The notes below the pieces were generated by a model that made no database searches, was not told the DNA's origin, and saw nothing but the letters and a program-made list of their open reading frames with translations. Of a DNA stretch of 51,175 bases, positions 6,498-15,578 are shown one piece after another. Numbering within the stretch: the first letter of the stretch is position 1; each line of letters opens with the position of its first letter. This DNA is from Oerskovia douganii (GTDB lineage: Bacteria; Actinomycetota; Actinomycetes; Actinomycetales; Cellulomonadaceae). The translations under genes and the position numbers were made by a program. The stretch lies in assembly GCF_015142735.1 (NCBI RefSeq), contig NZ_JACSPN010000002.1:251503-302677 (forward strand), in the 5' to 3' direction.

Positions 6498-6570
6498 GCC
6501 GCCTTAGCTCAGCTGGTAGAGCACTCGCCTTGTAAGCGAAAGGTCGTCGGTTCGAACCCGACAGGCGGCT
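6498..6570 (+). tRNA. tRNA-Thr (TGT)
   Basis: A full cloverleaf can be drawn: acceptor GCCGCCT pairs with AGGCGGC, D-stem GCTC/GAGC, anticodon loop CTTGTAA with anticodon TGT (threonine, ACA), and T-arm GTCGG-TTCGAAC-CCGAC with the invariant TTCGA. The discriminator is T and no CCA is encoded. The first anticodon-stem pair (C-A) is a mismatch. The 3' half, from inside the anticodon loop to the end, is duplicated at 15539-15578, so this gene is the integration site of the 9-kb element and keeps its function after integration. Confidence 0.96.
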
Positions 6571-6571
6571 C
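6532..6571. repeat. attL, 40-bp direct repeat with attR
   Basis: The 40 bases from the middle of the anticodon loop to one base past the tRNA are identical to 15539-15578. Upstream and downstream bases then diverge. This is the standard footprint of a tyrosine recombinase using the 3' end of a tRNA as attB. The integrase gene lies next to it. Confidence 0.95.
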
Positions 6572-6577
6572 TATAGC

Positions 6578-6611
6578 AGCAGGTCAGGCCCCATGTTGGG
6601 CCTGGCCTGCT
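6578..6611 (+). terminator. hairpin after attL
   Basis: A 14-bp stem (6578-6591 with 6598-6611, one G-T wobble) and a six-base loop follow the tRNA. It resembles the hairpin after attR in sequence (stem CAGGYCAGGYCC), so the element seems to supply a substitute terminator for the tRNA it occupies. Confidence 0.6.
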
Positions 6612-6706
6612 GTCGTTACGAGACAGGCACCCACCGGAAACCCACCGCTTTGGATTCCGGACGATACCTCTTGCGACCCCTGGCGGACCGCGAGACGATC
6701 GCCAAC

Positions 6707-6913
6707 ATGAGCGGCGAGGGCACGGTAGAGATCGAAATTAGCGTCGGAGACCAGGTCCTGGAGAGCGAGGTCCGGGCGCGCGCCGTGAGCGAGTGGCGAC
6801 GTGCGGTACATGCTCAGGGCAAGGTGCCTGACGGCGAGCCGGCCCTGGAGGTCCGCGGTCGCGACGAGCCTTGGACGCTGCATGTGGTTGGCCGGGTCGT
6901 CGACGCGGACTAG
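6707..6913 (+). CDS. small hypothetical protein of the element
   Basis: A 68-residue reading frame beginning MSGEGTVEIEISVGD, rich in charged residues and without membrane segments or cysteines. I do not recognise it. The ATG at 6707 is chosen over the longer frame (start 6593) because the upstream part would run through the post-tRNA hairpin. It converges on the integrase gene and their stop codons overlap (6910-6913). No strong ribosome site is visible, so it may not be real. Confidence 0.4.
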   Translation: MSGEGTVEIEISVGDQVLESEVRARAVSEWRRAVHAQGKVPDGEPALEVRGRDEPWTLHVVGRVVDAD

Positions 6914-8049
6914 TCCGCGAAGCGCCCCAGTACCTCTCGGAAGTCCGGCGCCAGATCCGGCACCTCGACGTAGTGGCGCTGGGTGATCTTCTCGGAGGTG
7001 TGGCCGAGCTGCGTCGCGGCATCAGCCAGCCCGCGGTCGCGCTCGATCATCGTGCCCACCGTCTTGCGGAACGTGTGGGGCGAGACCCACCCCCACCCGG
7101 AGTGCTTCTCGCGGAATGTCCGCCACTGCCGCTCGACCGTCGTCACCTCTCGCAGGCCTCCCGTCGCGGACGGGAAGAGGACGTTCCACGGACCCCCAGG
7201 CACGCCGTTCACCGAGCGGTCCAGGAGCAGCGAGACCGCGAACTTGGGCAGCTGGAGCCTGCGGACCTTCCGACCCTTCGTCGTGTCCTGACGGGTCAGC
7301 CCCTCGCCCTTCACGCGCACCACCGTGCCCGTGATCGCGACAGTCCCGGCCTCGAGGTCGACGTCGTCCCACCTCAACGCGAGCACCTCGCCGATGCGTG
7401 CGCCCGTCGCCAGCATCACGTCGACGAGCGCGGGCAGGTCGACCGCCGCCGCCTTCTGGTCGACCCGGAGCATCTCTCGCAGCGCCCGCACCTCGTCGAA
7501 GCTCAGAGCCCGAACCTCGTTGTCCGCAGACTCGATCCTCGACACGTCACGCAGCGGGTTCGCCGGCGCGGCGTTGTGACGCACGGCGAGCGCCATCATC
7601 CCCGACAAGACCGACTTGCAGAGCTTGGCCGTGGCCGCCCCCGTCTCGTCGGTCACTCGCTTCAGGTAGCGGTCCATCGCGGCCACCGTCGCCTCCCGGA
7701 CCGTGAGTCCACCGACACCCGGCACGATGAACGTCTCGACGACGTACCGGTACCGCTGGCGCGTGTTCGTCGACCGCTTGGACGCATCCACCTCGGTGCG
7801 CAGCCAGTAGTCCCCAAGGGCCGCCAGCCGCGTCGAACTCGACAGGTCCGTGCCTGACATCGTCGCGCGGTCCGTCATCGCCAGGACCAGTGCGCGCTCC
7901 GCAGCCGCGCCCGACTTCCCCCATGCCTCGACCTTGCGCGTCACCCCGTCCGGGTCACGGAACCGCGCCCGCGCCACCCATCGGCCACGCTCCACCTCCG
8001 TGCGAGCAATCCGCCCCCACGTCCCGATCGGCAGTGGATTCCTAGGCAT
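6910..8049 (-). CDS. int: tyrosine-type site-specific integrase
   Basis: Phage-integrase family recombinase of 379 residues that would insert and excise the element at tRNA-Thr. The N-terminal part holds an arm-binding domain and a SAM-like core-binding domain (about residues 70-165). The catalytic domain shows TGARIGEVLALRW (Arg I), HTFRKT (H-x-x-R) and LGHTSEKITQRHYVE (His and the nucleophilic Tyr). The ATG at 8049 overlaps the end of the repressor gene by eight bases (ATGCCTAG), with GAAAGG upstream inside that gene; an alternative ATG lies at 8061. The overlap means integrase is co-transcribed with, and translationally tied to, the repressor. The gene points toward attL, the usual arrangement. 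Confidence 0.95.
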   Translation of the reverse strand: MPRNPLPIGTWGRIARTEVERGRWVARARFRDPDGVTRKVEAWGKSGAAAERALVLAMTDRATMSGTDLSSSTRLAALGDYWLRTEVDASKRSTNTRQRYRYVVETFIVPGVGGLTVREATVAAMDRYLKRVTDETGAATAKLCKSVLSGMMALAVRHNAAPANPLRDVSRIESADNEVRALSFDEVRALREMLRVDQKAAAVDLPALVDVMLATGARIGEVLALRWDDVDLEAGTVAITGTVVRVKGEGLTRQDTTKGRKVRRLQLPKFAVSLLLDRSVNGVPGGPWNVLFPSATGGLREVTTVERQWRTFREKHSGWGWVSPHTFRKTVGTMIERDRGLADAATQLGHTSEKITQRHYVEVPDLAPDFREVLGRFAD

Positions 8050-8791
8050 CTGCGTGCCCATACCTTTCGTAGTCGGGACGGATTGATTCAGGCACCGCCT
8101 CGACGGTGATACCGCGCTCGCGCGCCCACTCGCGTGCCGCGTTGAGGACTCGGGCCGCCGACGCCACGTGGGCCTCGCGGATGTCCAACTCCGCCTCCCA
8201 CGCCTGGCGATCAGCGCCTGATCTCGAGGGGTGCCGATACATGGACGAGCCGCCGTCAGGGTCGAGACTCGCATCGCGGTCGTGAAGAGCCTGGCGCGCG
8301 AGGTCCCGCATCGCCACGCGATGTCCGAGCTGGCGTTCGGCAGCGGCGACACCTCGACGCGCCTCGATCCCGCCATCTTGCGAGTTGCTGGGTGCGATTA
8401 ACGAGGGATCCAGTCGAATCCAAGCGTCGTAGTCCGGTGCGACCTCATCTTCTCGCAGTAGCCACTCGCCGCTGAACCAGAGAAGCGCCTCGCCAAGGGT
8501 GCGCTCCTTGTTCGGAAGCACTGGCTGCATGTGCTCGGAATCGTAGAGCAGGGCCAGCGGTGCGAGGTTGAGCGCGGCCGCAAGGACGGCGAGCTCCTGG
8601 ACTGGGAGTTCGCGTTTCCGGCCCGATTCGATGTTCGCGATGGTGCTTCGCGGGATGGGGTAGCCAAGCCCTTCGCATCGTTCGCTCAACTCGCGCGCGG
8701 AAACTCCACGCTCCTTCCGGAGTGCCGCGAGATTCTCGCCGATCCTCTTCGCCCAACGAGCGGCCCAGTCACGTCCTGCTTCTTGTCCCAT
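8042..8791 (-). CDS. XRE-family repressor of the element
   Basis: DNA-binding regulator of 249 residues, probably the master repressor. A helix-turn-helix occupies about residues 15-80 (GENLAALRKERGVSARELSERC, then IPRSTIANIESGRKRELPVQE). The rest is mostly helical and charged, without a recognisable LexA-type protease or ImmA-like HExxH motif, so an induction mechanism is not apparent. It is divergent from the excisionase gene across a 112-bp control region and overlaps the integrase gene downstream. TAGCCT stands eight bases before the ATG, hinting at a short-leader or leaderless transcript. Confidence 0.85.
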   Translation of the reverse strand: MGQEAGRDWAARWAKRIGENLAALRKERGVSARELSERCEGLGYPIPRSTIANIESGRKRELPVQELAVLAAALNLAPLALLYDSEHMQPVLPNKERTLGEALLWFSGEWLLREDEVAPDYDAWIRLDPSLIAPSNSQDGGIEARRGVAAAERQLGHRVAMRDLARQALHDRDASLDPDGGSSMYRHPSRSGADRQAWEAELDIREAHVASAARVLNAAREWARERGITVEAVPESIRPDYERYGHADA

Positions 8792-8903
8792 GGGGACACA
8801 GGCTACATCCGATGTTGTGCTTTCGCGATAGCTATGGTTACTGTGTGATCACGAAGCAGCGGGTCGTCAGAAGTGTCCCGTGGCGAGACAAAGGAGGACT
8901 GAG
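8792..8903. promoter_or_regulatory. divergent control region, repressor / excisionase
   Basis: This 112-bp gap should hold both early promoters and the repressor operators. The dyad ATAGCTAT, within CGATAGCTATGG near 8827-8838, lies in the middle and is a candidate operator. Leftward there is TAGCCT close to the repressor start. Rightward the excisionase has a strong AAAGGAGG ribosome site. Confidence 0.5.
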
Positions 8904-9092
8904 ATGGCTCAAGCGGCTACACCGCCCCTGTTGACTCCGATTGATCTGGCGGCACAGCTCGGGGTCCCGATCCCCACCCTCTACGCCTGGCGAACGAGGG
9001 GAATCGGCCCCCGTGCGCTGAAGGTCGGCAAGCACCTGCGGTGGCGCCAGGCCGACGTAGACCAGTGGCTGGAACAGCAGGTGCCGGCCTGA
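8904..9092 (+). CDS. xis: excisionase-like HTH protein
   Basis: A 62-residue protein with the MerR/excisionase-type helix-turn-helix: LTPIDLAAQLGVPIPTLYAW followed by GPRALKVGKHLRWRQADVDQWL, ending two residues after the wing. This is the typical whole length of actinobacterial excisionase/AlpA-like proteins. As the first rightward gene, opposite the repressor, it most likely directs the integrase toward excision. It could also act as a transcription factor. Start chosen by AAAGGAGG six bases upstream of the ATG. Confidence 0.85.
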   Translation: MAQAATPPLLTPIDLAAQLGVPIPTLYAWRTRGIGPRALKVGKHLRWRQADVDQWLEQQVPA

Positions 9093-9196
9093 TGGGGCCA
9101 GTCTCGGCGACGCCCAGCCGCAGCGTGAAAGCCCCCGGCGACCGTTGCACCGGTCCCGAGGGCGTGGTTCCAACCCCTACCAAGGAGATCAAGAAC

Positions 9197-9691
9197 ATGA
9201 CCATCTTGCGTGACACCGAGGGAGCGGTCAACAAGACGCGGCTTCCGGCCGGCCTTCGACCCGTTCTGGTCACCACGAAGCCGGAGGACTTCACGCTCCC
9301 CGCCGCCTTCGCCTTGTGCGAGGTCGCGGGCGTGCGGATGGTCGAGTCGCCGAACCGGTGCAAGACGTTCACGAACAAGCTGCCGGACGGGGGCGAGTTC
9401 CGAATCGTCGGCTCGCTCACGTGGAACTTCGAGCTCAAGCGCCTATCGGCGTGGATCCGTTCAGACGCCACGCGTGATGAGACCACGACGCTGCTCGTTC
9501 AAGCAGTTCGCGAGGCCCGCAAGACCGCGCCCATCGCCGGAGAGTTCTGGTTCGAGTTCACGGCCAAGGGCGGGTTCCTCGCCCTGCAGCTCGACGTCGC
9601 GCGTCCGCTGAGCGACTACGGCGACGACCTGGCCCTCGTCGCACGTGTGCCGGAGTTCGCGCCGGAGTCCATGTCGGGGGCACTGAACTGA
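9197..9691 (+). CDS. hypothetical protein of the element
   Basis: A 164-residue soluble protein I cannot assign. It begins MTILRDTEGAVNKTRLPAG, is moderately acidic, and has a middle part (CEVAGVRMVESPNRCKTFTNKLPDGGEF) followed by helices. The ATG has AAGGAG nine bases upstream. It sits between excisionase and the replication initiator in the rightward operon, so an early role such as replication or helper interference is possible; that is position-based inference only. Confidence 0.75.
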   Translation: MTILRDTEGAVNKTRLPAGLRPVLVTTKPEDFTLPAAFALCEVAGVRMVESPNRCKTFTNKLPDGGEFRIVGSLTWNFELKRLSAWIRSDATRDETTTLLVQAVREARKTAPIAGEFWFEFTAKGGFLALQLDVARPLSDYGDDLALVARVPEFAPESMSGALN

Positions 9692-9719
9692 CGATGCGAC
9701 GACGGGAGGGAGGTGCGGA

Positions 9720-10502
9720 GTGGGATCCAAGAACGTAGCGGAGGTCTACGCGCTGTGGCACAGCCTCCCGCACCGTCCCTTCCGTCTGCTCGTGTTCATG
9801 GCGTTCATGGCCCTCGACGAGTCCCGTGAGGGGCAAGCGGCCTGTCTCTACTGGGGCGGGCAGGAGCGGCTCGGGCTTGCGATCGGTCGACCAGCGCCAG
9901 CGAAGCCAGACGAGGACGATCTGAGTCCGGCCGCCGAGGACGCCCGTCGTGAACGCAGGCTCGTGTTCGAAGCCGTGCGCACTGACGTCAAGAAGCTCAT
10001 CGACGCCGGAGCGATCGAACGGGTACGCCAGGGCGGCTACGGCGGGCGCAGCGAGTACCGACTCACTCTCACACAGACCCCACTTCAGGTGGGGTCTACG
10101 GGAACGGGGAATGGCCAACCCGGCGTGCCCCAGACCCCATCTCAGCCAGGGTCTACAGACCCCACTTCAGGTGGGGTCACAGGCCCCATCTCAGGTGGGG
10201 TCACAGACCCCACTTCAGGTGGGGCCCTACTACAAGAGACTTCAACACCACTTCAACAGGCCGAATCCAACATGGTGCCCCGTAGTTCGTCTCACCAGCG
10301 CGCGAGGGCCGTCGAGGAGCACCAAGGACCAGACGAGGAGTACGAGTCCGCGAGGAACGAGCTCGTGGCCTACGGCCCCAGAGCACACAGCCTCATCGCC
10401 CAGATTCAAGGCGCCTATCCCGAGACCACGCTGCGCGACGCCGTCATCGAGGCAGCAGCAGCCCTTGCGATCGTCGCCGCCGACGACAGGAGGACCGCAT
10501 GA
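9720..10502 (+). CDS. putative replication initiator with internal iterons
   Basis: A 260-residue protein whose N-terminal half (GSKNVAEVYALWHSLPHRPFRLLVFMAFMAL, then WGGQERLGLAIG and VFEAVRTDVKKLIDAGAIERV) looks like a winged-helix DNA-binding domain of the kind found in small actinobacterial element initiators. The middle (about residues 120-170) is an eight-residue repeat (DPTSGGVT, GPISGGVT, DPTSGGAL) encoded by five palindromes. The C-terminal helical part may bind a partner such as DnaB. Initiator genes that contain their own origin are well known (lambda O). The function is inferred from fold and repeats. The GTG start has GGGAGG upstream; its stop overlaps the next ATG (ATGA). Confidence 0.65.
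   Translation: MGSKNVAEVYALWHSLPHRPFRLLVFMAFMALDESREGQAACLYWGGQERLGLAIGRPAPAKPDEDDLSPAAEDARRERRLVFEAVRTDVKKLIDAGAIERVRQGGYGGRSEYRLTLTQTPLQVGSTGTGNGQPGVPQTPSQPGSTDPTSGGVTGPISGGVTDPTSGGALLQETSTPLQQAESNMVPRSSSHQRARAVEEHQGPDEEYESARNELVAYGPRAHSLIAQIQGAYPETTLRDAVIEAAAALAIVAADDRRTA
10075..10227. repeat. five palindromic iterons, candidate origin
   Basis: Five 23-bp units begin at 10075, 10132, 10157, 10181 and 10205. Each has a left arm close to AGACCCCAC, a five-base centre TTCAG or CTCAG, and a right arm close to GTGGGGTCT. The first is a perfect 9-bp dyad. The last four are spaced 25, 24 and 24 bases, keeping both the reading frame and roughly the same helical face. Iterated dyads inside an initiator gene are the expected form of a replication origin. 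Confidence 0.7.
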
Positions 10503-10675
10503 AGACCACCCCGAGCAGGCCCGAGACCACCGACGAGCACGGAACCACCCACCGCTACGGGTGCTACATGCCCGGCTGGACATCCAAGCCCGCCAGCCTG
10601 CGCGGCTGGCACCTCCTGACCTGCCCCACCTGCGGAGCCGTCCGTCTGGTTAGGGCCGGACGGGGGACCGCGTGA
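10499..10675 (+). CDS. small hypothetical protein with CxxC
   Basis: A 58-residue protein beginning MKTTPSRPETTDE, with RYGCYMPGW and LLTCPTCGAVRL. Three cysteines suggest an incomplete zinc ribbon. Its ATG overlaps the stop of the initiator gene (ATGA) and its TGA overlaps the GTG of the next gene (GTGA), strong signs of a real, translationally coupled gene. Function unknown. Confidence 0.6.
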   Translation: MKTTPSRPETTDEHGTTHRYGCYMPGWTSKPASLRGWHLLTCPTCGAVRLVRAGRGTA

Positions 10676-10881
10676 ACGTCCGGCTCAAGACCTCGGCCCG
10701 CCCAGGGCAGTTCGTCGCATTCGTGGCCCTCGACGGGCGCGGAGAGACCCGCGCTCGGTTCCGTCGCAGCGACCGCGTCAACCAGTGGCACTGCGACGAC
10801 TGCGGGACCCACCGCTTCAGCACATGCCCCCACGAACGAGCCGCGCTCACCGCGTGGCGCAACCGGAAGGAACGACCATGA
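10672..10881 (+). CDS. small zinc-finger-like protein
   Basis: A 69-residue protein with a likely zinc site: WHCDDCGTH followed by FSTCPHERAA. It is basic and could bind nucleic acid. It starts with a GTG overlapping the preceding stop and ends overlapping the ATG of the scaffold gene (ATGA). Position just before capsid genes is where small regulators or HNH-like remnants often lie, but no nuclease motif is present. Function unknown. Confidence 0.6.
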   Translation: MNVRLKTSARPGQFVAFVALDGRGETRARFRRSDRVNQWHCDDCGTHRFSTCPHERAALTAWRNRKERP

Positions 10882-11345
10882 CCGACAGCACCATCCAGGC
10901 CGACACCGACGAGACCGGCGACGCCGCGGAAGTCGCCACCGCCGCAGGGGGCGAAGGAGACGCCCTCGAGGCGGCCGAGACGGACGCCAAGGGGCCTGGC
11001 GCCGAGGCTGCGAAGTACCGCCGACAGCTGCGCGAGGCCGAGGGTGAGCGGGACCAGCTGCGAGAGACGGTCCAGGCGCTGCGGACTGCGGCCGCTGAAC
11101 AACACATCGCCGGCATCCTCGCCAAGCCTGCGACGCTGTGGTTGACGGGCGTCACCGTTGACGACTTCACCGCAGAGGACGGGACGCTCGACGTCGACGC
11201 ACTCTCGGGCGCTGCGCGCGGCGCGGCCGAAGCGCACGGACTCGAACGTCACTCGGTCATGTTCGAGTCCCCAGGCGCTCACCGTACCGAGGGCACAGGC
11301 AACCCCCCGGCGACCTGGCAGGGGCTCTTGTCGCGCCAAGCATGA
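10878..11345 (+). CDS. capsid scaffold-like protein
   Basis: A 155-residue acidic protein with a low-complexity N-terminus (residues 1-45), a coiled coil (about 45-77, KYRRQLREAEGERDQLRETV) and a short C-terminal domain (IAGILAKPATLWLTGVTVDDFTAEDGTLD). This layout and its place just upstream of the capsid gene match phage scaffolding proteins. HK97 itself uses an N-terminal delta domain on the capsid protein, which is missing here, so a separate scaffold is needed. ATG overlaps the previous stop and GGAAGGA lies upstream. Confidence 0.7.
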   Translation: MTDSTIQADTDETGDAAEVATAAGGEGDALEAAETDAKGPGAEAAKYRRQLREAEGERDQLRETVQALRTAAAEQHIAGILAKPATLWLTGVTVDDFTAEDGTLDVDALSGAARGAAEAHGLERHSVMFESPGAHRTEGTGNPPATWQGLLSRQA

Positions 11346-11488
11346 CGCGCCCTGGCCCGGTAGACTCGGACATGACCGAGGGTGCCGGGCCAGGCGCTCG
11401 CCCCCAGGTCACGCAGCCCCAGCGGGGCAGCGCGGAGAAGGCCGGTGGCCGCCGCGTCGAAGACCAATCGACCGTGCGCGCCACCTAG
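11342..11488 (+). CDS. 48-residue ORF between scaffold and capsid
   Basis: A short reading frame (starts MTRPGPVDSDMTEG) opening with ATGA across the scaffold stop. It is hydrophilic, with Arg, Gly and Gln, and has no recognisable domain. A hairpin-prone GC-rich stretch lies within it. The coupled start argues for translation; it may simply carry ribosomes to the capsid gene. Confidence 0.35.
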   Translation: MTRPGPVDSDMTEGAGPGARPQVTQPQRGSAEKAGGRRVEDQSTVRAT

Positions 11489-11511
11489 CGCCCTCCCCCT
11501 TGGAGTCACCC

Positions 11512-12351
11512 GTGACCATGCTCACCACCACCGCGAACGTTGCCGGCATCCTGCCCGACAGCTTCGGGCCGCTCATCATCCAGCCCGTTCAGGACCGATC
11601 CATCGCCTTCCAGGTCTCCAACGTCATCTCGACCGGCACGACCAAGATGCGCGTGCCGGTCATCACCGACGACCCGAACGCAGCATGGGTCGCCGAGGGT
11701 GCCGAGATCAACGCTGACGAGGGCACCCTGGACCAGCTCACCATCACTCCCACCAAGGTTGCCGGGCTTACCCCGATCTCCTCCGAGCTCGCCAGCGACT
11801 CGAGCCCCGCGGCCGGCCAGCTCATCGGCGAGGGTCTGGCCCGATCCATCGCGAAGGTTGTTGACGCCGCCTTCTTCGGCAACGCCGCGGCCCCGGCGCA
11901 GAAGGGTCTCGGAGGACTCGTCGGGGTGAACGTCGTTGACGCAGGGGCGGCATGGATCAACCTCGACCCGTTCGCCGAGGCCATCGCTGAGGCAGAGCAG
12001 GTCGGAGCCACCATCACCTCGTTCGTCGCGAACCCGACTGACGCGCTGATCCTCGCGCAGCTCAAGGACGAGGACGGTTCGAACCGGCCGCTGCTTGGCG
12101 TCGACCCGACGCAGCCCACGCGTCGACTCGTGCAGGGCGTGCGGCTGTTCGTCTCGCCAGCGGTCGCGCCCGGCACCGTCTTCGGCATCCCGGCCGATCG
12201 CTCGCTCGTAGTCCTTCGCGATGACGTGACTGTCGACGTCGACCACTCGGTGTTCTTCACGAGCCACCGAGTCGCCGTCCGCGCGATCATGCGCGTGGGC
12301 TTCGGCTTCCCTCACGCCGCGGCTATCCAGAAGGTCACGCTCACGCCGTGA
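11512..12351 (+). CDS. HK97-fold major capsid protein
   Basis: Shell subunit of 279 residues. The sequence follows the phage_capsid family: an N-arm (ILPDSFGPLIIQPVQDRS), the E-loop and spine helix region (MRVPVITDDPNAAWVAEGAEI, then KVAGLTPISSELASDS), A-domain strands and a C-terminal DHSVFFTSHRVAVRAIMRVGF motif. Its length equals a mature HK97 subunit (about 280 residues) rather than a precursor. No prohead protease gene is nearby, so it likely assembles uncleaved on the separate scaffold. The GTG start at 11512 has GGAG six bases upstream; an ATG two codons later is possible. It is the only structural shell gene in the element. Confidence 0.88.
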   Translation: MTMLTTTANVAGILPDSFGPLIIQPVQDRSIAFQVSNVISTGTTKMRVPVITDDPNAAWVAEGAEINADEGTLDQLTITPTKVAGLTPISSELASDSSPAAGQLIGEGLARSIAKVVDAAFFGNAAAPAQKGLGGLVGVNVVDAGAAWINLDPFAEAIAEAEQVGATITSFVANPTDALILAQLKDEDGSNRPLLGVDPTQPTRRLVQGVRLFVSPAVAPGTVFGIPADRSLVVLRDDVTVDVDHSVFFTSHRVAVRAIMRVGFGFPHAAAIQKVTLTP

Positions 12352-12361
12352 CCCACACGCT

Positions 12362-12404
12362 CGGCAGCGGCCTGAGTCTTCCCTCCTCAACCAGGCCGCT
12401 GCCG
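12362..12404 (+). terminator. terminator after capsid gene
   Basis: A perfect 13-bp GC-rich stem (12362-12374 with 12392-12404) and a 17-base loop begin ten bases after the capsid stop. There is no T-tract, as is common in high-GC genomes. It should end the main rightward operon. Confidence 0.6.
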
Positions 12405-12574
12405 GACCCTCCCGCACCTCCGGGGGGTCCCCCCTTAGCCCCCAGCCGCCGGAACCGCCGGAGAGGGGGATTTGGACCTGTACGGGACTGGGGATCTCCA
12501 GTGGTGGTCATACTTTCGCCGCACAGCAGCGCCCTGGCCCCCTTCCCGTCGCCCCGGCCCCCTACGATCCGAGG

Positions 12575-12949
12575 ATGACCACGAACTACGACGCCGCTTG
12601 GTCCAAGCTCCCCGCATCCGTGCGCGATCGGCTCATCGAGGACCCGGAGTGCCTACTGACGGCGGACGACGTGACTGCACTCGCACATGCCGGAGCGCCA
12701 CCCCTGCTCGTCTACTGGACGGACGGACAGCCGGCCACCGGAGAGCGGTGGCTGCTCACAGGATCGTTCGAGCGCTACGTGAGGACGAAGGCCCTCGAGG
12801 CGGAACGAGCGACGCTGGTCGATGAGGGGTTCGTCGTCGGGACATACGCCCCGGGACAGGCCGTGCGCTTCCCGGTGCGATCGGTCGAAGACGTAACCGA
12901 CCGCGTCCGGGCGATCGACGTCGAGCTCCGGGACCTCGCGAAGGAGTAG
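12575..12949 (+). CDS. hypothetical protein of the element
   Basis: A 124-residue acidic, soluble protein of unknown family. It begins MTTNYDAAWSKLPASVRDRLIEDPE, has a strand-rich middle (PPLLVYWTDGQPATGERWLL) and a C-terminal helix. TACGAT (12563-12568) stands exactly six bases before the ATG, so it probably has its own promoter and a leaderless transcript, separate from the capsid operon. This would allow expression in the integrated state, as for cargo or immunity genes. Confidence 0.65.
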   Translation: MTTNYDAAWSKLPASVRDRLIEDPECLLTADDVTALAHAGAPPLLVYWTDGQPATGERWLLTGSFERYVRTKALEAERATLVDEGFVVGTYAPGQAVRFPVRSVEDVTDRVRAIDVELRDLAKE

Positions 12950-13763
12950 CCGACCCCTCGCCGGAACGTCTTCTCGGTTCATCGACCCGACCTAGTCGCC
13001 CCTGGGCCGCCGGGATGGCCTCGACGCAATCGACCCCATCGCCCGTGCTGTCCGCCCCGCGGAGACTGGCAACTCTCGCCCTCAGCGAGGGTTCACTTGA
13101 AGTCGCCTGCGAGCGGACCCTCGTCAACGAGCCTGGATGACGTCAGCAGTACTGACCCCATCGTCGAGCCTCGGGAAGGGGGTCCATCGGGCGGACGGCC
13201 TCGACAGCGCGGAGAGCACCCCTCCACGGGGTGACGTCGGATCAGCCCGGTTCTCGGCACCGTACGGTTCGACACCGAGCGCCTCGACGAGGGGTGCATT
13301 CCGAGTGCACCCCCTTCAGACGCCCGGCGCGCCCCGCGAGGATTTCGGGGTTGACCCTGGAAAGGGGTCTGTCTGCTGGACGCCCCTACCCAGGGAAGGC
13401 GACCTTCGGTGACGCCGCCGAAGTTGTTTCGGTCGCCCGCGCTCGGGAGGTTCCATCCGCCAGGCGGACGCTCACGACGTCACTCCGAGATTGTGCGGGA
13501 TCCCGCAAATTGCCGCGAGGCTCAGAGGGTGCGGGGGAGGTTCCATCTCCGTGAGGGGGCACTCCTCATGCATCCCTCGCCGGACAGGAAGCTGACAGCC
13601 TCCAGAGTGCGGAGGTTGTCGCGGAGTGGGGTAACACGGTGTGACCCTATGCGTGGGGCCGGGTCTACCGATCGGAGCGGGCGCGCTACGCGCGGGCTGA
13701 TGTCGAGCTCGATTCCCTCACGACCTAGGGGAATGCCCGCACGTCCAGGGCGGGTGAAGTTCG
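12950..13763. repeat. non-coding tract A with inverted repeats
   Basis: This 814-bp stretch has no convincing gene. It holds many dyads: 13217-13233 (6 bp, 5-base loop), 13259-13268 (perfect), 13291-13313 (8 bp), 13418-13432 (5 bp, 5-base loop), 13494-13507 (perfect 14-bp palindrome), 13629-13647 and 13681-13693. The 48 bases at 13189-13236 match 15093-15140 at 40 positions, and 14 bases at 13013-13026 match the same module. GGGAGGTTCCATC occurs at both 13445 and 13536. The tract is thus related to tract B on the other side of the GAF gene. Role unknown. Confidence 0.6.
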
Positions 13764-14600
13764 ATGGGGAGACTGGGCGAGCAAGTGCTGAACAGCCAGC
13801 CTGGGATAGTGTCACGGCTCGTGAAAGACCTGTGGAGGGCCGTACTGAGCGCAGCGTCGCGCTCGACCCTGCTAGGACCCGTCTCCGCACTCCTTCTGGC
13901 CGCTGCTGGACTGTTGGTTGGGCCCTGGGGGCTCTGGACGCTTGCCGTGGCGGGCCCGGGGGCTATCGGCGTCGTCGTTGAGGCGCTGTCGAAGCGGGTC
14001 CTGGCTCGAGAGGCGGGCGAGTTCAAGCTCTTGGTCTACGGCTGCCTGGGGCCGCTCGTGCGGTGCCTCGCCGTCCTCGCGAGCAAGACCACACCCACGA
14101 AGAGGAAGGACGCCCTTCCTGATGTCCTTTGGGCAGCATTGACGGCAGCCCTCAGCCTCACGAACCCCGATGGCTCGCGAGCATCGTTCTTCGTACGTGA
14201 GCGGATCGATGGCGACGACTGCCTGCTGCCTCACCCCACCCTGACCTGGGGGCGCGGCGATGATCCGGTCTCACGCTTCTTCCGCAGCTCGGGGGAGGGC
14301 ATAGAGGTATGGAGGCAGGCAGAAACCGGAGTACCCTCCTTCTGCGAGGATCTAGAAACCAAGCCACCAGAGGGCATCGACCTCGCGCGAGAGCGGTCGT
14401 ACCGGACGTACATCACGGCCCCGCTCATGGTCTCGGGCCGAGTCGCCGGCCTACTGACCATCAACGCGGCCAAGCCCGGCGACCTCACCAAGGTCGACGT
14501 CGGGGTAGTTCAGGTGTTGGCGCGACTCGCGAGCGCAGCCATCTCACTTTGCGGGGGTGCCTGGGCGGATACTGGTACACAATCGGGAGAGGGAGGTTGA
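13764..14600 (+). CDS. membrane-anchored GAF-domain protein
   Basis: A 278-residue protein with two adjacent hydrophobic segments (about residues 37-75, LLGPVSALLLAAAGLLVGPW and TLAVAGPGAIGVVVEAL), a helical linker, and a C-terminal GAF-like sensor domain (about 118-265, ending TAPLMVSGRVAGLLTINAA and VVQVLARLASAAISL). No kinase, cyclase or nuclease domain follows, so it is a sensor without an obvious output. Embedded as the only sizeable cargo of a satellite, a defence or superinfection role is plausible but unproven. The ATG at 13764 lacks a good ribosome site; a GTG at 13821, eight bases after TAGTGT, is a serious alternative start. Confidence 0.65.
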   Translation: MGRLGEQVLNSQPGIVSRLVKDLWRAVLSAASRSTLLGPVSALLLAAAGLLVGPWGLWTLAVAGPGAIGVVVEALSKRVLAREAGEFKLLVYGCLGPLVRCLAVLASKTTPTKRKDALPDVLWAALTAALSLTNPDGSRASFFVRERIDGDDCLLPHPTLTWGRGDDPVSRFFRSSGEGIEVWRQAETGVPSFCEDLETKPPEGIDLARERSYRTYITAPLMVSGRVAGLLTINAAKPGDLTKVDVGVVQVLARLASAAISLCGGAWADTGTQSGEGG

Positions 14601-14601
14601 G

Positions 14602-14775
14602 ATGAGCACTGACAAGTGGTCAACCGACATGGACCGTCGCGTCGCAGAAATGCGGCGTGACCCGATCCGATATCTCGAGTCTGTGCGACGCGAGGTGAAT
14701 CGGGGAACGCTCTCGTCCGCCCCGCGCGACCACAAAGACGCTCCGCAGACCGCAAGCGCTGAGCGTCGGCGCTGA
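14602..14775 (+). CDS. 57-residue partner of the GAF protein
   Basis: A small charged protein (MSTDKWSTDMDRRVAEMRRDPIRYLESVRREV...) predicted to be helical, unknown family. The ATG lies one base after the GAF gene stop with GGGAGG seven bases upstream, so the two form a bicistronic unit. Such tight pairing suggests it modulates or is sensed by the GAF protein; this is inference from arrangement. Confidence 0.6.
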   Translation: MSTDKWSTDMDRRVAEMRRDPIRYLESVRREVNRGTLSSAPRDHKDAPQTASAERRR

Positions 14776-15538
14776 ACCCACCCGAGTTGCGCCACTATGG
14801 CGGTGCAGCCGCAGGGGTCCTGTGCCGCGCCTGATCCCTTCACTTTGCTGACGCCAGCAATTTGGTGCAAACCGGACATCACATCCCTGACGTCACGAAA
14901 GTGATGCGACACGCCGGGGTACTCGCTGGCCGAGTACCCCGGCAGAGTCCCCGCCCCAGGTCGCCCAGGGTGTCGGTCAGATCGACACCCTGGGGTCGCT
15001 CGGACCTACCCCATTCCCGGTGACCTCAGTACTGCTGAGGGCATCGGAGCTGGCCAAAGGGGGTACGTCTGGCGTACCCCCTTGTTGAGCCCGGGCGGAT
15101 GGCCTCGACGGTGTCGAGGGCACCCTTCCATGGGGTGACGCCGAATTACCCCATTCCAAGGGGTGTACACACTGTGTACCCCTCCGGAGCATCGGCCAAG
15201 GGGTCGCACAATCTGCGGACCCTTTTCAAGGTCCACCCTGAAAACTCCGGTGGCGTCACCAAGGTTGGCCGCCTGGGCCTTCTTCGCGGCGCCGCGAAGA
15301 AGACCCAGGTAAGCCGGGCTTACCCCAGGCCAGGGGTGCGCCTGACGCACCCCATCGCTGAGCCTCCGTGAAGGAGGCTCAGCATCCGCCTGACGGATGG
15401 TCACCCACCGCTTACCCGGCGGAATCGACGCGATCCACCGCCGAACGACGAGCGTCAGTGAAGGTCGGCGGTCGAGCGTCATCCCAGGTGACAGGCAATA
15501 TTGCTGATCCACCGCATAACGATGAAAACTACGGGCAC
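14776..15538. repeat. non-coding tract B: dense hairpin array
   Basis: No gene is evident. Fourteen hairpins lie almost end to end: 14845-14860, 14891-14906 (GAAA tetraloop), 14913-14943 (13 bp), 14964-14994 (12 bp), 15024-15040, 15057-15083 (11 bp), 15103-15119, 15160-15182, 15198-15224, 15272-15309 (19 bp, one mismatch), 15308-15324, 15333-15353 (8 bp), 15357-15383 (11 bp) and 15383-15399. Loops are mostly five bases, and CCTGA recurs as a loop. Four of five non-Watson-Crick changes are G-U only if the plus strand is RNA. Before attR there is a more AT-rich stretch with GCAATATTGC (15495-15504), a likely integrase arm region. Confidence 0.75.
15272..15309. repeat. 38-bp near-perfect palindrome
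   Basis: The left arm 15272-15290 and right arm 15291-15309 pair at 18 of 19 positions, with the central 24 bp perfect and no spacer. It is the strongest dyad of the tract. As DNA it could form a cruciform or bind a dimeric protein; as RNA it would be a long hairpin. Confidence 0.85.
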
Positions 15539-15578
15539 GTAAGCGAAAGGTCGTCGGTTCGAACCCGACAGGCGGCTC
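15539..15578. repeat. attR, 40-bp direct repeat with attL
   Basis: Identical to 6532-6571 (3' part of tRNA-Thr). It marks the right end of the element. The 5' half of the tRNA is absent here, so this copy is not a tRNA gene. Confidence 0.95.

What the first reader, a model, noticed from the sequence alone, without database searches (positions are those of the whole stretch)
6532..15578. 9.0-kb capsid-encoding satellite-like element in tRNA-Thr
The sequence shows a complete integrative unit: 40-bp att repeats, integrase, repressor, excisionase, initiator, scaffold and HK97 capsid. It lacks terminase, portal, protease, tail and lysis. It cannot make a phage by itself, yet it keeps its own shell gene. 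Elements of this size and content (phiRv1, phiRv2) are known in mycobacteria, and capsid-forming satellites exist, but a shell-only satellite with such long structured non-coding tracts would be new.
Basis: partly seen in the sequence, partly recalled or inferred. Interest (0 to 1): 0.85.

Follow-up and report, generated by a model that had tools for sequence, protein, structure and literature searches.

The report
Satellite carrying only its own shell
A 9-kb mobile element in an actinobacterium carries the genes for a virus-like shell but, as far as can be detected, none for filling that shell or for a tail, so it probably borrows the rest from an invading phage; look-alikes occur across many actinobacteria.

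Summary
A 9,047-bp element (6532-15578) sits in tRNA-Thr(TGT) between exact 40-bp repeats. It encodes tyrosine integrase, repressor, excisionase, an initiator-like protein, a putative scaffold and an HK97 major capsid protein (MCP). No terminase, portal, protease, tail or lysis gene was found.

It is probably not a deletion remnant. Related capsids (about 27-61% identity) occur across Actinomycetota. Of 26 elements with mapped att repeats (7.8-10.9 kb, median 9.2), 23 lack detectable TerL and portal. Among 50,697 phage records, the only long capsid matches are eleven ~11-kb Mycolicibacterium aichiense "phages" (a twelfth matches over 77%), which look like satellites. One shares 24 identical bases spanning the end junction of a 51.5-kb phage of the same host.

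Best explanation (0.6): the element excises, replicates, builds its own small head from scaffold plus MCP, and takes portal, terminase and tail from an infecting helper. Main rival: a Ccm-like protein co-assembling with the helper's capsid. Integrase-plus-MCP candidate PICIs are already described in mycobacteria, so this is a new, minimal variant of a known kind. The structured tract (14776-15538) is real (z -12.8) but is not a family feature; its role is unknown.

The parts
6498..6571 (+). tRNA-Thr (TGT), the integration target; its 3' part is attL
   Evidence: ARAGORN, Rfam RF00005 69.4 bits
6532..6571 (+). attL, 40-bp direct repeat
   Evidence: identical to 15539-15578
6910..8049 (-). tyrosine integrase (start codon chosen by eye)
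   Evidence: PF00589 2.2e-19, PF22022; phrog_1 6.4e-50
8042..8791 (-). repressor-like HTH protein, 249 aa
   Evidence: HTH_3 3.7e-8; phrog_8 1.9e-8
8880..9092 (+). excisionase-like HTH_17 protein, 70 aa
   Evidence: HTH_17 1.2e-11; phrog_66 2.6e-11; TIGR01764 over cut-off
9197..9691 (+). unknown protein (start chosen by eye; the mechanical ORF begins at 9041)
   Evidence: coding-like by codon score; no family hit; no phage relative
9720..10502 (+). putative replication initiator, 260 aa
   Evidence: phrog_270 2.8e-5; no relative in phages or plasmids collections
10672..10881 (+). small ORF, 69 aa, unknown; not kept by the codon-score caller
   Evidence: ORF only
10878..11345 (+). putative scaffold protein just upstream of the capsid gene
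   Evidence: family found upstream of the capsid in 40 of 73 loci by BLAST clusters and 50 of 73 by an HMM built from those 40
11518..12351 (+). HK97-fold major capsid protein, 277 aa, without delta domain
   Evidence: PF05065 1.3e-30; TIGR01554 3.3e-29; AlphaFold2 pLDDT 82.6, best PDB match mycobacteriophage Muddy capsid E 1.1e-15
12575..12949 (+). unknown protein, 124 aa
   Evidence: coding-like; no family hit
12950..13763 (.). non-coding tract, moderately structured
   Evidence: fold z -3.25; no matching DNA elsewhere in 79 genomes searched with 12950-15538
13764..14600 (+). GAF-domain protein, 278 aa, probable cargo (hydrophobic N-terminal part by eye)
   Evidence: GAF_2 2.0e-14
14602..14775 (+). 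small ORF, 57 aa
   Evidence: ORF only; no family hit
14776..15538 (.). dense array of hairpins; candidate for origin or packaging region, unproved
   Evidence: fold z -12.84; 11 hairpins in the kilobase from 15000, two of which lie beyond attR
15539..15578 (+). attR, 40-bp direct repeat

Best explanation
A phage satellite that encodes its own head shell and borrows the rest. Steps: (1) Int integrates it at the 3' end of tRNA-Thr(TGT) and the repressor keeps it silent [shown: anatomy; inferred: function]. (2) An infecting helper phage relieves repression, Xis and Int excise it and the initiator replicates it [inferred]. (3) Scaffold and MCP assemble a small procapsid [inferred; both genes are conserved side by side across the family]. 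(4) The helper's portal, terminase and tail complete and fill it; the terminase is recruited by a cos- or pac-like site in the element, most likely in one of the two non-coding tracts [inferred; the model is the M. aichiense satellites, one of which carries the end junction of a phage of the same host]. (5) The particle delivers the 9-kb element to a new cell.
For: Capsid lineage specific to small elements: of 50,697 phage records the capsid finds 31, of which 11 match over at least 80% of it, and these are all ~11-kb M. aichiense records (a twelfth at 77%). Their annotated genes include no large terminase and no portal (2 of 12 records opened). Alyssa1 begins with 24 bases identical to the joined ends of HerbertWM, a 51.5-kb phage of the same host species with TerL, portal, protease, scaffold and MCP; 9 of 12 satellite records hold this stretch or much of it near an end: Alyssa1, six with 21-22 bp exact, two with 35 bp at 88.6%. 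Purifying selection on MCP: dN/dS 0.04-0.41 in 10 of 10 pairs (simple Nei-Gojobori). Mobility: the close capsid is in 1 of 7 species of the genus, while relatives lie across Actinomycetota; 5 of 6 other species have the same dsbA-tRNA-Thr site with other sequence after it. No resident helper: the own genome has no hit for phrog_2, PF03354, PF05133 or PF04860.
Against: No induction, particle or transfer data exist. No helper is known for this element, and no phage DNA matches its non-coding tracts convincingly (best E 0.2 and 3). Scaffold function has no profile support. Scaffold-MCP co-variation is weak (Mantel r 0.24, p 0.001, n 44) and vanishes when the mycobacterial group is left out (r 0.06, p 0.34, n 22). 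The M. aichiense satellites are the only ones with a packaging clue; they carry extra head and tail genes (terminase-like, adaptor, stopper, tape measure) that this element lacks, and one of the two opened (WillG) shares only 7 bases with the HerbertWM junction. phrog_2 misses the TerL of L093, so absence rests on several profiles together, not on one.
Confidence: 0.6

Rival explanations
1. Ccm-like redirection: the element's MCP is not a complete shell protein but is inserted into the helper's own capsid (as SaPIbov5 Ccm forms the pentamers) to shrink it to satellite size, which also harms the helper.
For: SaPIbov5 is a cos-type satellite whose HK97-fold Ccm occupies the pentamers of T=4 procapsids and is the only satellite protein found in them (PMC8569155, passages read). 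Our element also has a lone MCP with no packaging genes.
Against: Ccm has its own delta domain and works with a helper without a separate scaffold; here the MCP lacks a delta domain and travels with a conserved separate scaffold (50 of 73 loci). A co-assembling protein should resemble some helper's MCP; the best phage matches outside the small satellites are only 25-29% over about 36% of the protein in the rows shown.
Confidence: 0.17
2. Remnant of a prophage that lost terminase, portal, tail and lysis genes.
For: Most phage genes are absent; a truly decayed relative exists (L050, capsid interrupted by stops).
Against: Att sites, integrase, xis and MCP are intact here; 23 of 26 mapped relatives have the same gene set and a narrow size range; no complete phage in the collection has this capsid lineage over most of its length; MCP under purifying selection.
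Confidence: 0.07
3. Reduced capsid-forming PICI that packages into its own head with a helper terminase but also needs further helper head proteins, i.e. a point on a continuous scale from full cf-PICI to shell-only, not a distinct class.
For: The same capsid family occurs with TerL, portal and adaptor in a mycobacterial group, with TerL only in others, and with neither in most; the tree needs at least 5 changes for the three states.
Against: It is compatible with the best explanation and differs in emphasis; the direction of change (gain or loss of packaging genes) was not rooted: the outgroup row is too long-branched.
Confidence: 0.1
4. Domesticated element: the shell is kept for the host, for example as an anti-phage decoy or an encapsulin-like compartment, and is no longer mobilised.
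For: An encapsulin is among the 50 best fold matches (rank 33), as expected for the HK97 fold.
Against: Sequence belongs to PF05065 phage capsids, and an encapsulin family is not among the hits; integration module intact; patchy distribution.
Confidence: 0.05

Closest known systems
Candidate PICIs of Mycobacterium (integrase + MCP regions), including phiRv1/phiRv2 (PMC10654092, passages read)
   Same: Operationally defined by integration genes plus MCP; the tyrosine-integrase ones sit in tRNA genes; some carry terminase or capsid assembly scaffold genes; called satellites on sequence alone.
   Different: Those are mycobacterial. This one lies in another actinobacterial order, has no terminase detectable, and belongs to a capsid lineage not compared with theirs here. 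phiRv1 and phiRv2 sequences were not fetched.
Mycolicibacterium aichiense ~11-kb phage records OR387110-OR387121
   Same: MCP 34-35% identical; a protein of the scaffold family in the same place (Alyssa1); integrase; no annotated TerL or portal in the two records opened.
   Different: Serine integrase; also annotated with a terminase (134 aa in Alyssa1; Terminase_4, E 0.015, below cut-off), head-to-tail adaptor, stopper and tape measure protein.
Capsid-forming PICIs (cf-PICI), as described in PMC10690885 (passages read)
   Same: Satellite brings its own MCP.
   Different: cf-PICIs encode MCP, protease, portal, connectors, both terminase subunits and HNH; this element has MCP (and a putative scaffold) only.
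MulchRoom and MiniFlayer satellites of Streptomyces phages (PMC10690885)
   Same: Actinobacterial satellites with own MCP and scaffold.
   Different: They encode small and large terminase, portal and adaptor and lack obvious replicases; genomes have direct terminal repeats.
SaPIbov5 with Ccm (PMC8569155, passages read)
   Same: Cos-type satellite with a lone HK97-fold capsid homologue.
   Different: Ccm has a delta domain, no scaffold partner, and cannot form capsids alone.

Membership tests
Phage satellite (general) | Integrated mobile element with own integrase, regulator and defined att sites | tested here: met
Phage satellite (general) | Lacks a full set of virion and lysis genes | tested here: met
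Phage satellite (general) | Mobilised by a helper phage | not testable with these tools
   no helper known; none resident by four profiles
Candidate PICI sensu PMC10654092 | Phage-like region with integration machinery and an MCP gene | tested here: met
   definition
Candidate PICI sensu PMC10654092 | Lies in a Mycobacteriaceae genome | tested here: not met
   same order as genomes whose contigs match Demequina and Brevibacterium in length; mycobacterial loci come from a different order (inferred)
cf-PICI | Major capsid protein | tested here: met
cf-PICI | Portal, head maturation protease, connectors | tested here: not met
cf-PICI | Small and large terminase, HNH endonuclease | tested here: not met
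SaPIbov5/Ccm type | Capsid homologue with N-terminal delta domain | tested here: not met
   TIGR01554 match starts at profile position 108, protein residue 4
SaPIbov5/Ccm type | Capsid homologue sits in the pentamers of helper capsids | not testable with these tools
   needs particles and cryo-EM
SaPIbov5/Ccm type | Helper cos site in the element | tested here: inconclusive
   no phage match to the two main non-coding tracts better than E 0.2; helper unknown
phiRv1/phiRv2 | Homologous capsid and gene set | not tested
   sequences not fetched

The most novel reading that the evidence does not exclude
An Actinomycetota-wide family of phage satellites whose only structural genes are a scaffold and an MCP: they build a dedicated small shell of about 9-kb capacity from a capsid lineage not seen in complete phages, and mount on it the portal, terminase and tail of whichever helper recognises a borrowed cos-like site. 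This is the mirror image of capsid-stealing satellites and the minimal form of capsid-forming ones; it implies that a portal can be used across unrelated shells.
Probability: 0.45. Interest if true: 0.78.

Novelty: new variant of a known kind. Interest (0 to 1): 0.6.

Why it matters
If true, a satellite needs to own only the shell: portal, motor and tail are interchangeable between unrelated heads. That would test how specific portal-shell recognition is, give a source of natural small HK97 capsids whose size could be measured, and explain many ~9-kb 'int + capsid' islands in actinobacterial genomes that are easily taken for prophage debris. The M. aichiense satellites and HerbertWM offer a host pair in which the packaging idea can be tested directly.

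Tried and rejected
Deletion remnant: considered and mostly rejected. Hairpin array as a design feature of the family: rejected, 128 hairpins in 70.8 non-coding kb inside against 93 in 39.5 kb outside over 26 elements; the window (4.25 per kb) and L080 (4.98) stand out. Matching the tracts to phage cos regions: 47 weak records for the right tract and 1 for the left, none convincing. Scaffold-MCP co-evolution: weak, see the Against line. Initiator and the 9197-9691 protein: no relatives in phages, the initiator none in plasmids. PADLOC: only weak HTH matches (MAD1-like for Xis, 3.4e-7; HTH_VI for the repressor), not taken as defence. A clean empty site with both flanks joined was not found: the right flank gene occurs in 1 of 7 species of the genus.

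Rows dropped before counts: four duplicate loci (L066, L067, L073, L119) before clustering; 70 of the 80 viral loci kept were not used (only L112-L121); the six distant loci from other phyla (L106-L111) were left out; L070 was dropped from the att set because its repeat is 447 bp; seven loci with repeats but no integrase call inside were left out (L077, L085, L104, L112, L048, L058, L059). Seven of the 26 att repeats are only 18-22 bp. Scan A3 took 100 of 125 long proteins, and its output shows only the 25 commonest families of 63 (Pfam) and 134 (PHROGs), so single-protein hits there were not seen. First tree labels were wrong for L094, L102-side calls and L120 and are replaced.

Literature: search listings; passages read in PMC10654092, PMC10690885, PMC8569155, PMC12409344, PMC8814770. 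In this library (open licences only, no bioRxiv collection) I saw no paper on the M. aichiense satellites or on a shell-only family; subscription papers were not searchable, and the cf-PICI and SatelliteFinder papers were not read (the latter is not held).
Full report
WHAT IS THERE. The element runs from 6532 to 15578 in tRNA-Thr(TGT) (6498-6571), between two identical 40-bp repeats. Each repeat is followed by a terminator-like hairpin, so similarity extends to 86 nt at 83%: the incoming copy restores the tRNA 3' end and brings its own terminator-like hairpin (inference). In order: integrase (-), repressor (-), excisionase (+), unknown protein, initiator-like protein, a 69-aa ORF, putative scaffold, MCP, a 124-aa unknown, a GAF-domain protein and a 57-aa ORF. 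The MCP matches PF05065 (1.3e-30) and NCBIfam major_cap_HK97 from profile position 108 on, so it has no delta domain. Its predicted structure (24-row alignment, pLDDT 82.6) finds phage capsids first: Muddy, D3, HK97, Bxb1; a SaPI1 capsid and an encapsulin also appear in the best 50.

WHAT IS NOT THERE. Pfam, PHROGs and NCBIfam scans of 10 main ORFs and Pfam and PHROGs scans of 10 minor ORFs gave no terminase, portal, protease, tail or lysis family. Local HMMs for TerL (two families), portal, the terminase-like cluster c6 and adaptor-like clusters, run on six-frame ORFs of 50 residues or more of 26 elements, found nothing in the window. The whole genome of the window has no hit for phrog_2, PF03354, PF05133 or PF04860, so no prophage recognisable by these profiles could act as resident helper.

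RELATIVES. With the capsid as query: 12 of 149 related genomes at E<=1e-5, 23 of 396 genomes of the order at 1e-12, and with an alignment 24 of 394 genomes of the class at 1e-20, the own genome included each time. A named collection gave 50 loci, 44 of them in Actinomycetota (Streptomyces, Saccharomonospora, Actinomyces, Demequina, Nocardia, Mycobacterium, Gordonia, Microbacterium and others) and six distant ones elsewhere. Within the window's own genus the close capsid is in 1 of 7 species; one other has a 28% match.

ARCHITECTURE. I made gene calls by a codon score trained on the capsids and clustered them in 73 loci: MCP in 73 (by construction), scaffold family in 40 by BLAST clusters and 50 by an HMM built from those, tyrosine integrase in 34, serine integrase in 18. 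Among 100 long non-structural proteins scanned from these loci, the commonest families are primases, helicases and repressors; three match Terminase_6N (only the top 25 families are shown). So replication modules differ from element to element while scaffold and MCP stay.

MAPPED ELEMENTS. A direct repeat of at least 17 bp bracketing integrase and MCP was found in 26 loci (L070 dropped): span 7.8-10.9 kb, median 9.18, sd 0.81. TerL lies inside 3 (L044, L068, L093) and a portal inside 1 (L093); 23 of 26 have neither. Where a genome-wide hit had coordinates inside or near a locus range, contig lengths showed it to be another contig. Counting only repeats of at least 24 bp, 17 of 19 have neither. 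Three of the 23 carry the terminase-like cluster c6 (L043, L054, L056); the window does not. On the capsid tree (68 rows, quick method, many weak forks) the three states neither/TerL/portal need at least 5 changes, against a shuffled mean of 10.7; the 7 portal rows lie within one nine-row group, mostly mycobacterial and viral contigs, supported at 98%. The root is uncertain, so loss and gain cannot be told apart.

NOT DECAY. MCP pairs have dN/dS of 0.04-0.41 in 10 of 10 comparisons. A decayed relative, L050, looks different: its capsid has stops. Gordonia spumicola holds two elements with MCPs 99.3% identical on different contigs, which suggests recent movement. In the phage collection (50,697 records) the capsid finds 31 records; only the M. 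aichiense ~11-kb records match over most of it (11 at 80% or more, one at 77%); the other rows shown cover about 36% at 25-29% identity.

THE PACKAGING CLUE. Two of the twelve M. aichiense records were opened. They are annotated with terminase, adaptor, stopper, MCP, tape measure protein and serine integrase, but no large terminase or portal, and phrog_2 finds no TerL. Alyssa1 starts with 24 bases that are identical to HerbertWM's last 14 plus first 10 bases, i.e. across that phage's end junction. Nine of the twelve records, Alyssa1 included, hold this stretch or part of it near an end: six with 21-22 bp exact, two with 35 bp at 88.6%. WillG shares only 7 bases; JSGardenL2 and Maddie1 are not in the list. 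HerbertWM infects the same species, comes from the same town, and encodes TerL, portal, protease, scaffold and MCP; its tape measure protein is 39.7% identical to the satellites'. This is what borrowing a helper's cos site would look like. That HerbertWM itself is the helper is not shown.

MECHANISM FOR THE WINDOW. From this I infer: excision on infection, own replication, own small head from scaffold and MCP, helper portal, terminase and tail. A published scaling of T with genome length (exponent 0.71; lambda T=7 at 48.5 kb; PMC8814770, passages) gives about T=2 for 9 kb, outside its fitted range (16.7-498 kb); SaPIbov5 procapsids are T=4. A T=3 or T=4 shell, or more than one copy per head, would fit. 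The main rival is Ccm-like co-assembly. The element's conserved separate scaffold and its lack of a delta domain argue against it but do not exclude it. The scaffold-MCP Mantel correlation is weak (r 0.24, p 0.001, n 44), drops to r 0.06, p 0.34, n 22 without the mycobacterial group, while integrase and MCP show none (r -0.23, n 32).

THE TRACTS. 14776-15538 is strongly structured (z -12.84) and 12950-13762 mildly so (z -3.25). No similar DNA occurs in 78 other genomes and only weak matches in phages. The family as a whole has no excess of hairpins. A role as origin or packaging region is a guess.

EMPTY SITE. In 5 of 6 other species of the genus the dsbA-like gene and tRNA-Thr(TGT) are followed by other DNA without any element protein in the ~3-kb loci; in the sixth the contig ends there. 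The right-hand neighbour gene is found in no other species, so the joined empty site could not be shown.

NOVELTY. Integrase-plus-MCP candidate PICIs are known from mycobacteria (PMC10654092), full-head satellites from Streptomyces and cf-PICIs from elsewhere (PMC10690885), and a lone capsid homologue from SaPIbov5 (PMC8569155). New here, as far as the searches named in Tried and rejected show: scaffold-plus-MCP-only as the common state of a broad actinobacterial family with a narrow size, and a packaging clue in its relatives. I file it as a new variant of a known kind.

Noticed in passing
L044:7831-9264 (Brevibacterium antiquum), also L042, L068: A TerL-like gene of about 250 aa with only the ATPase half (Terminase_6N); in L044 a second ORF follows that weakly matches the nuclease half (Terminase_6C, E 0.0023, below cut-off). 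Split or interrupted terminase in a satellite without portal.
   Followed up: partly
L087 and L089 (Gordonia spumicola): Two elements in one genome with MCPs 99.3% identical on different contigs. Other genomes also hold two or three related capsids (G217, G254, Mycobacterium sp. 852002-51961).
   Followed up: no
L002 1-24 against MN224566 ends: 24 identical bases across the end junction of phage HerbertWM in the M. aichiense satellite Alyssa1; these records are filed as complete phage genomes though they look like satellites.
   Followed up: partly
window 13764-14600: GAF-domain protein with a hydrophobic N-terminal part as apparent cargo, between the two non-coding tracts.
   Followed up: no
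window 13013-13033 and 15097-15117; 13114-13155 and 15026-15067: The two non-coding tracts share a 21-nt direct repeat (86%) and a 42-nt inverted pair (71%), so they may be related modules flanking the cargo.
   Followed up: no
L080, about 1-2 kb after the capsid (Nocardia amamiensis): The only other mapped element with a hairpin density like the window's (7 hairpins in one kilobase).
   Followed up: no
L050 (G044, same family as the window): Decayed relative: capsid interrupted by stops beside tRNA genes.
   Followed up: no
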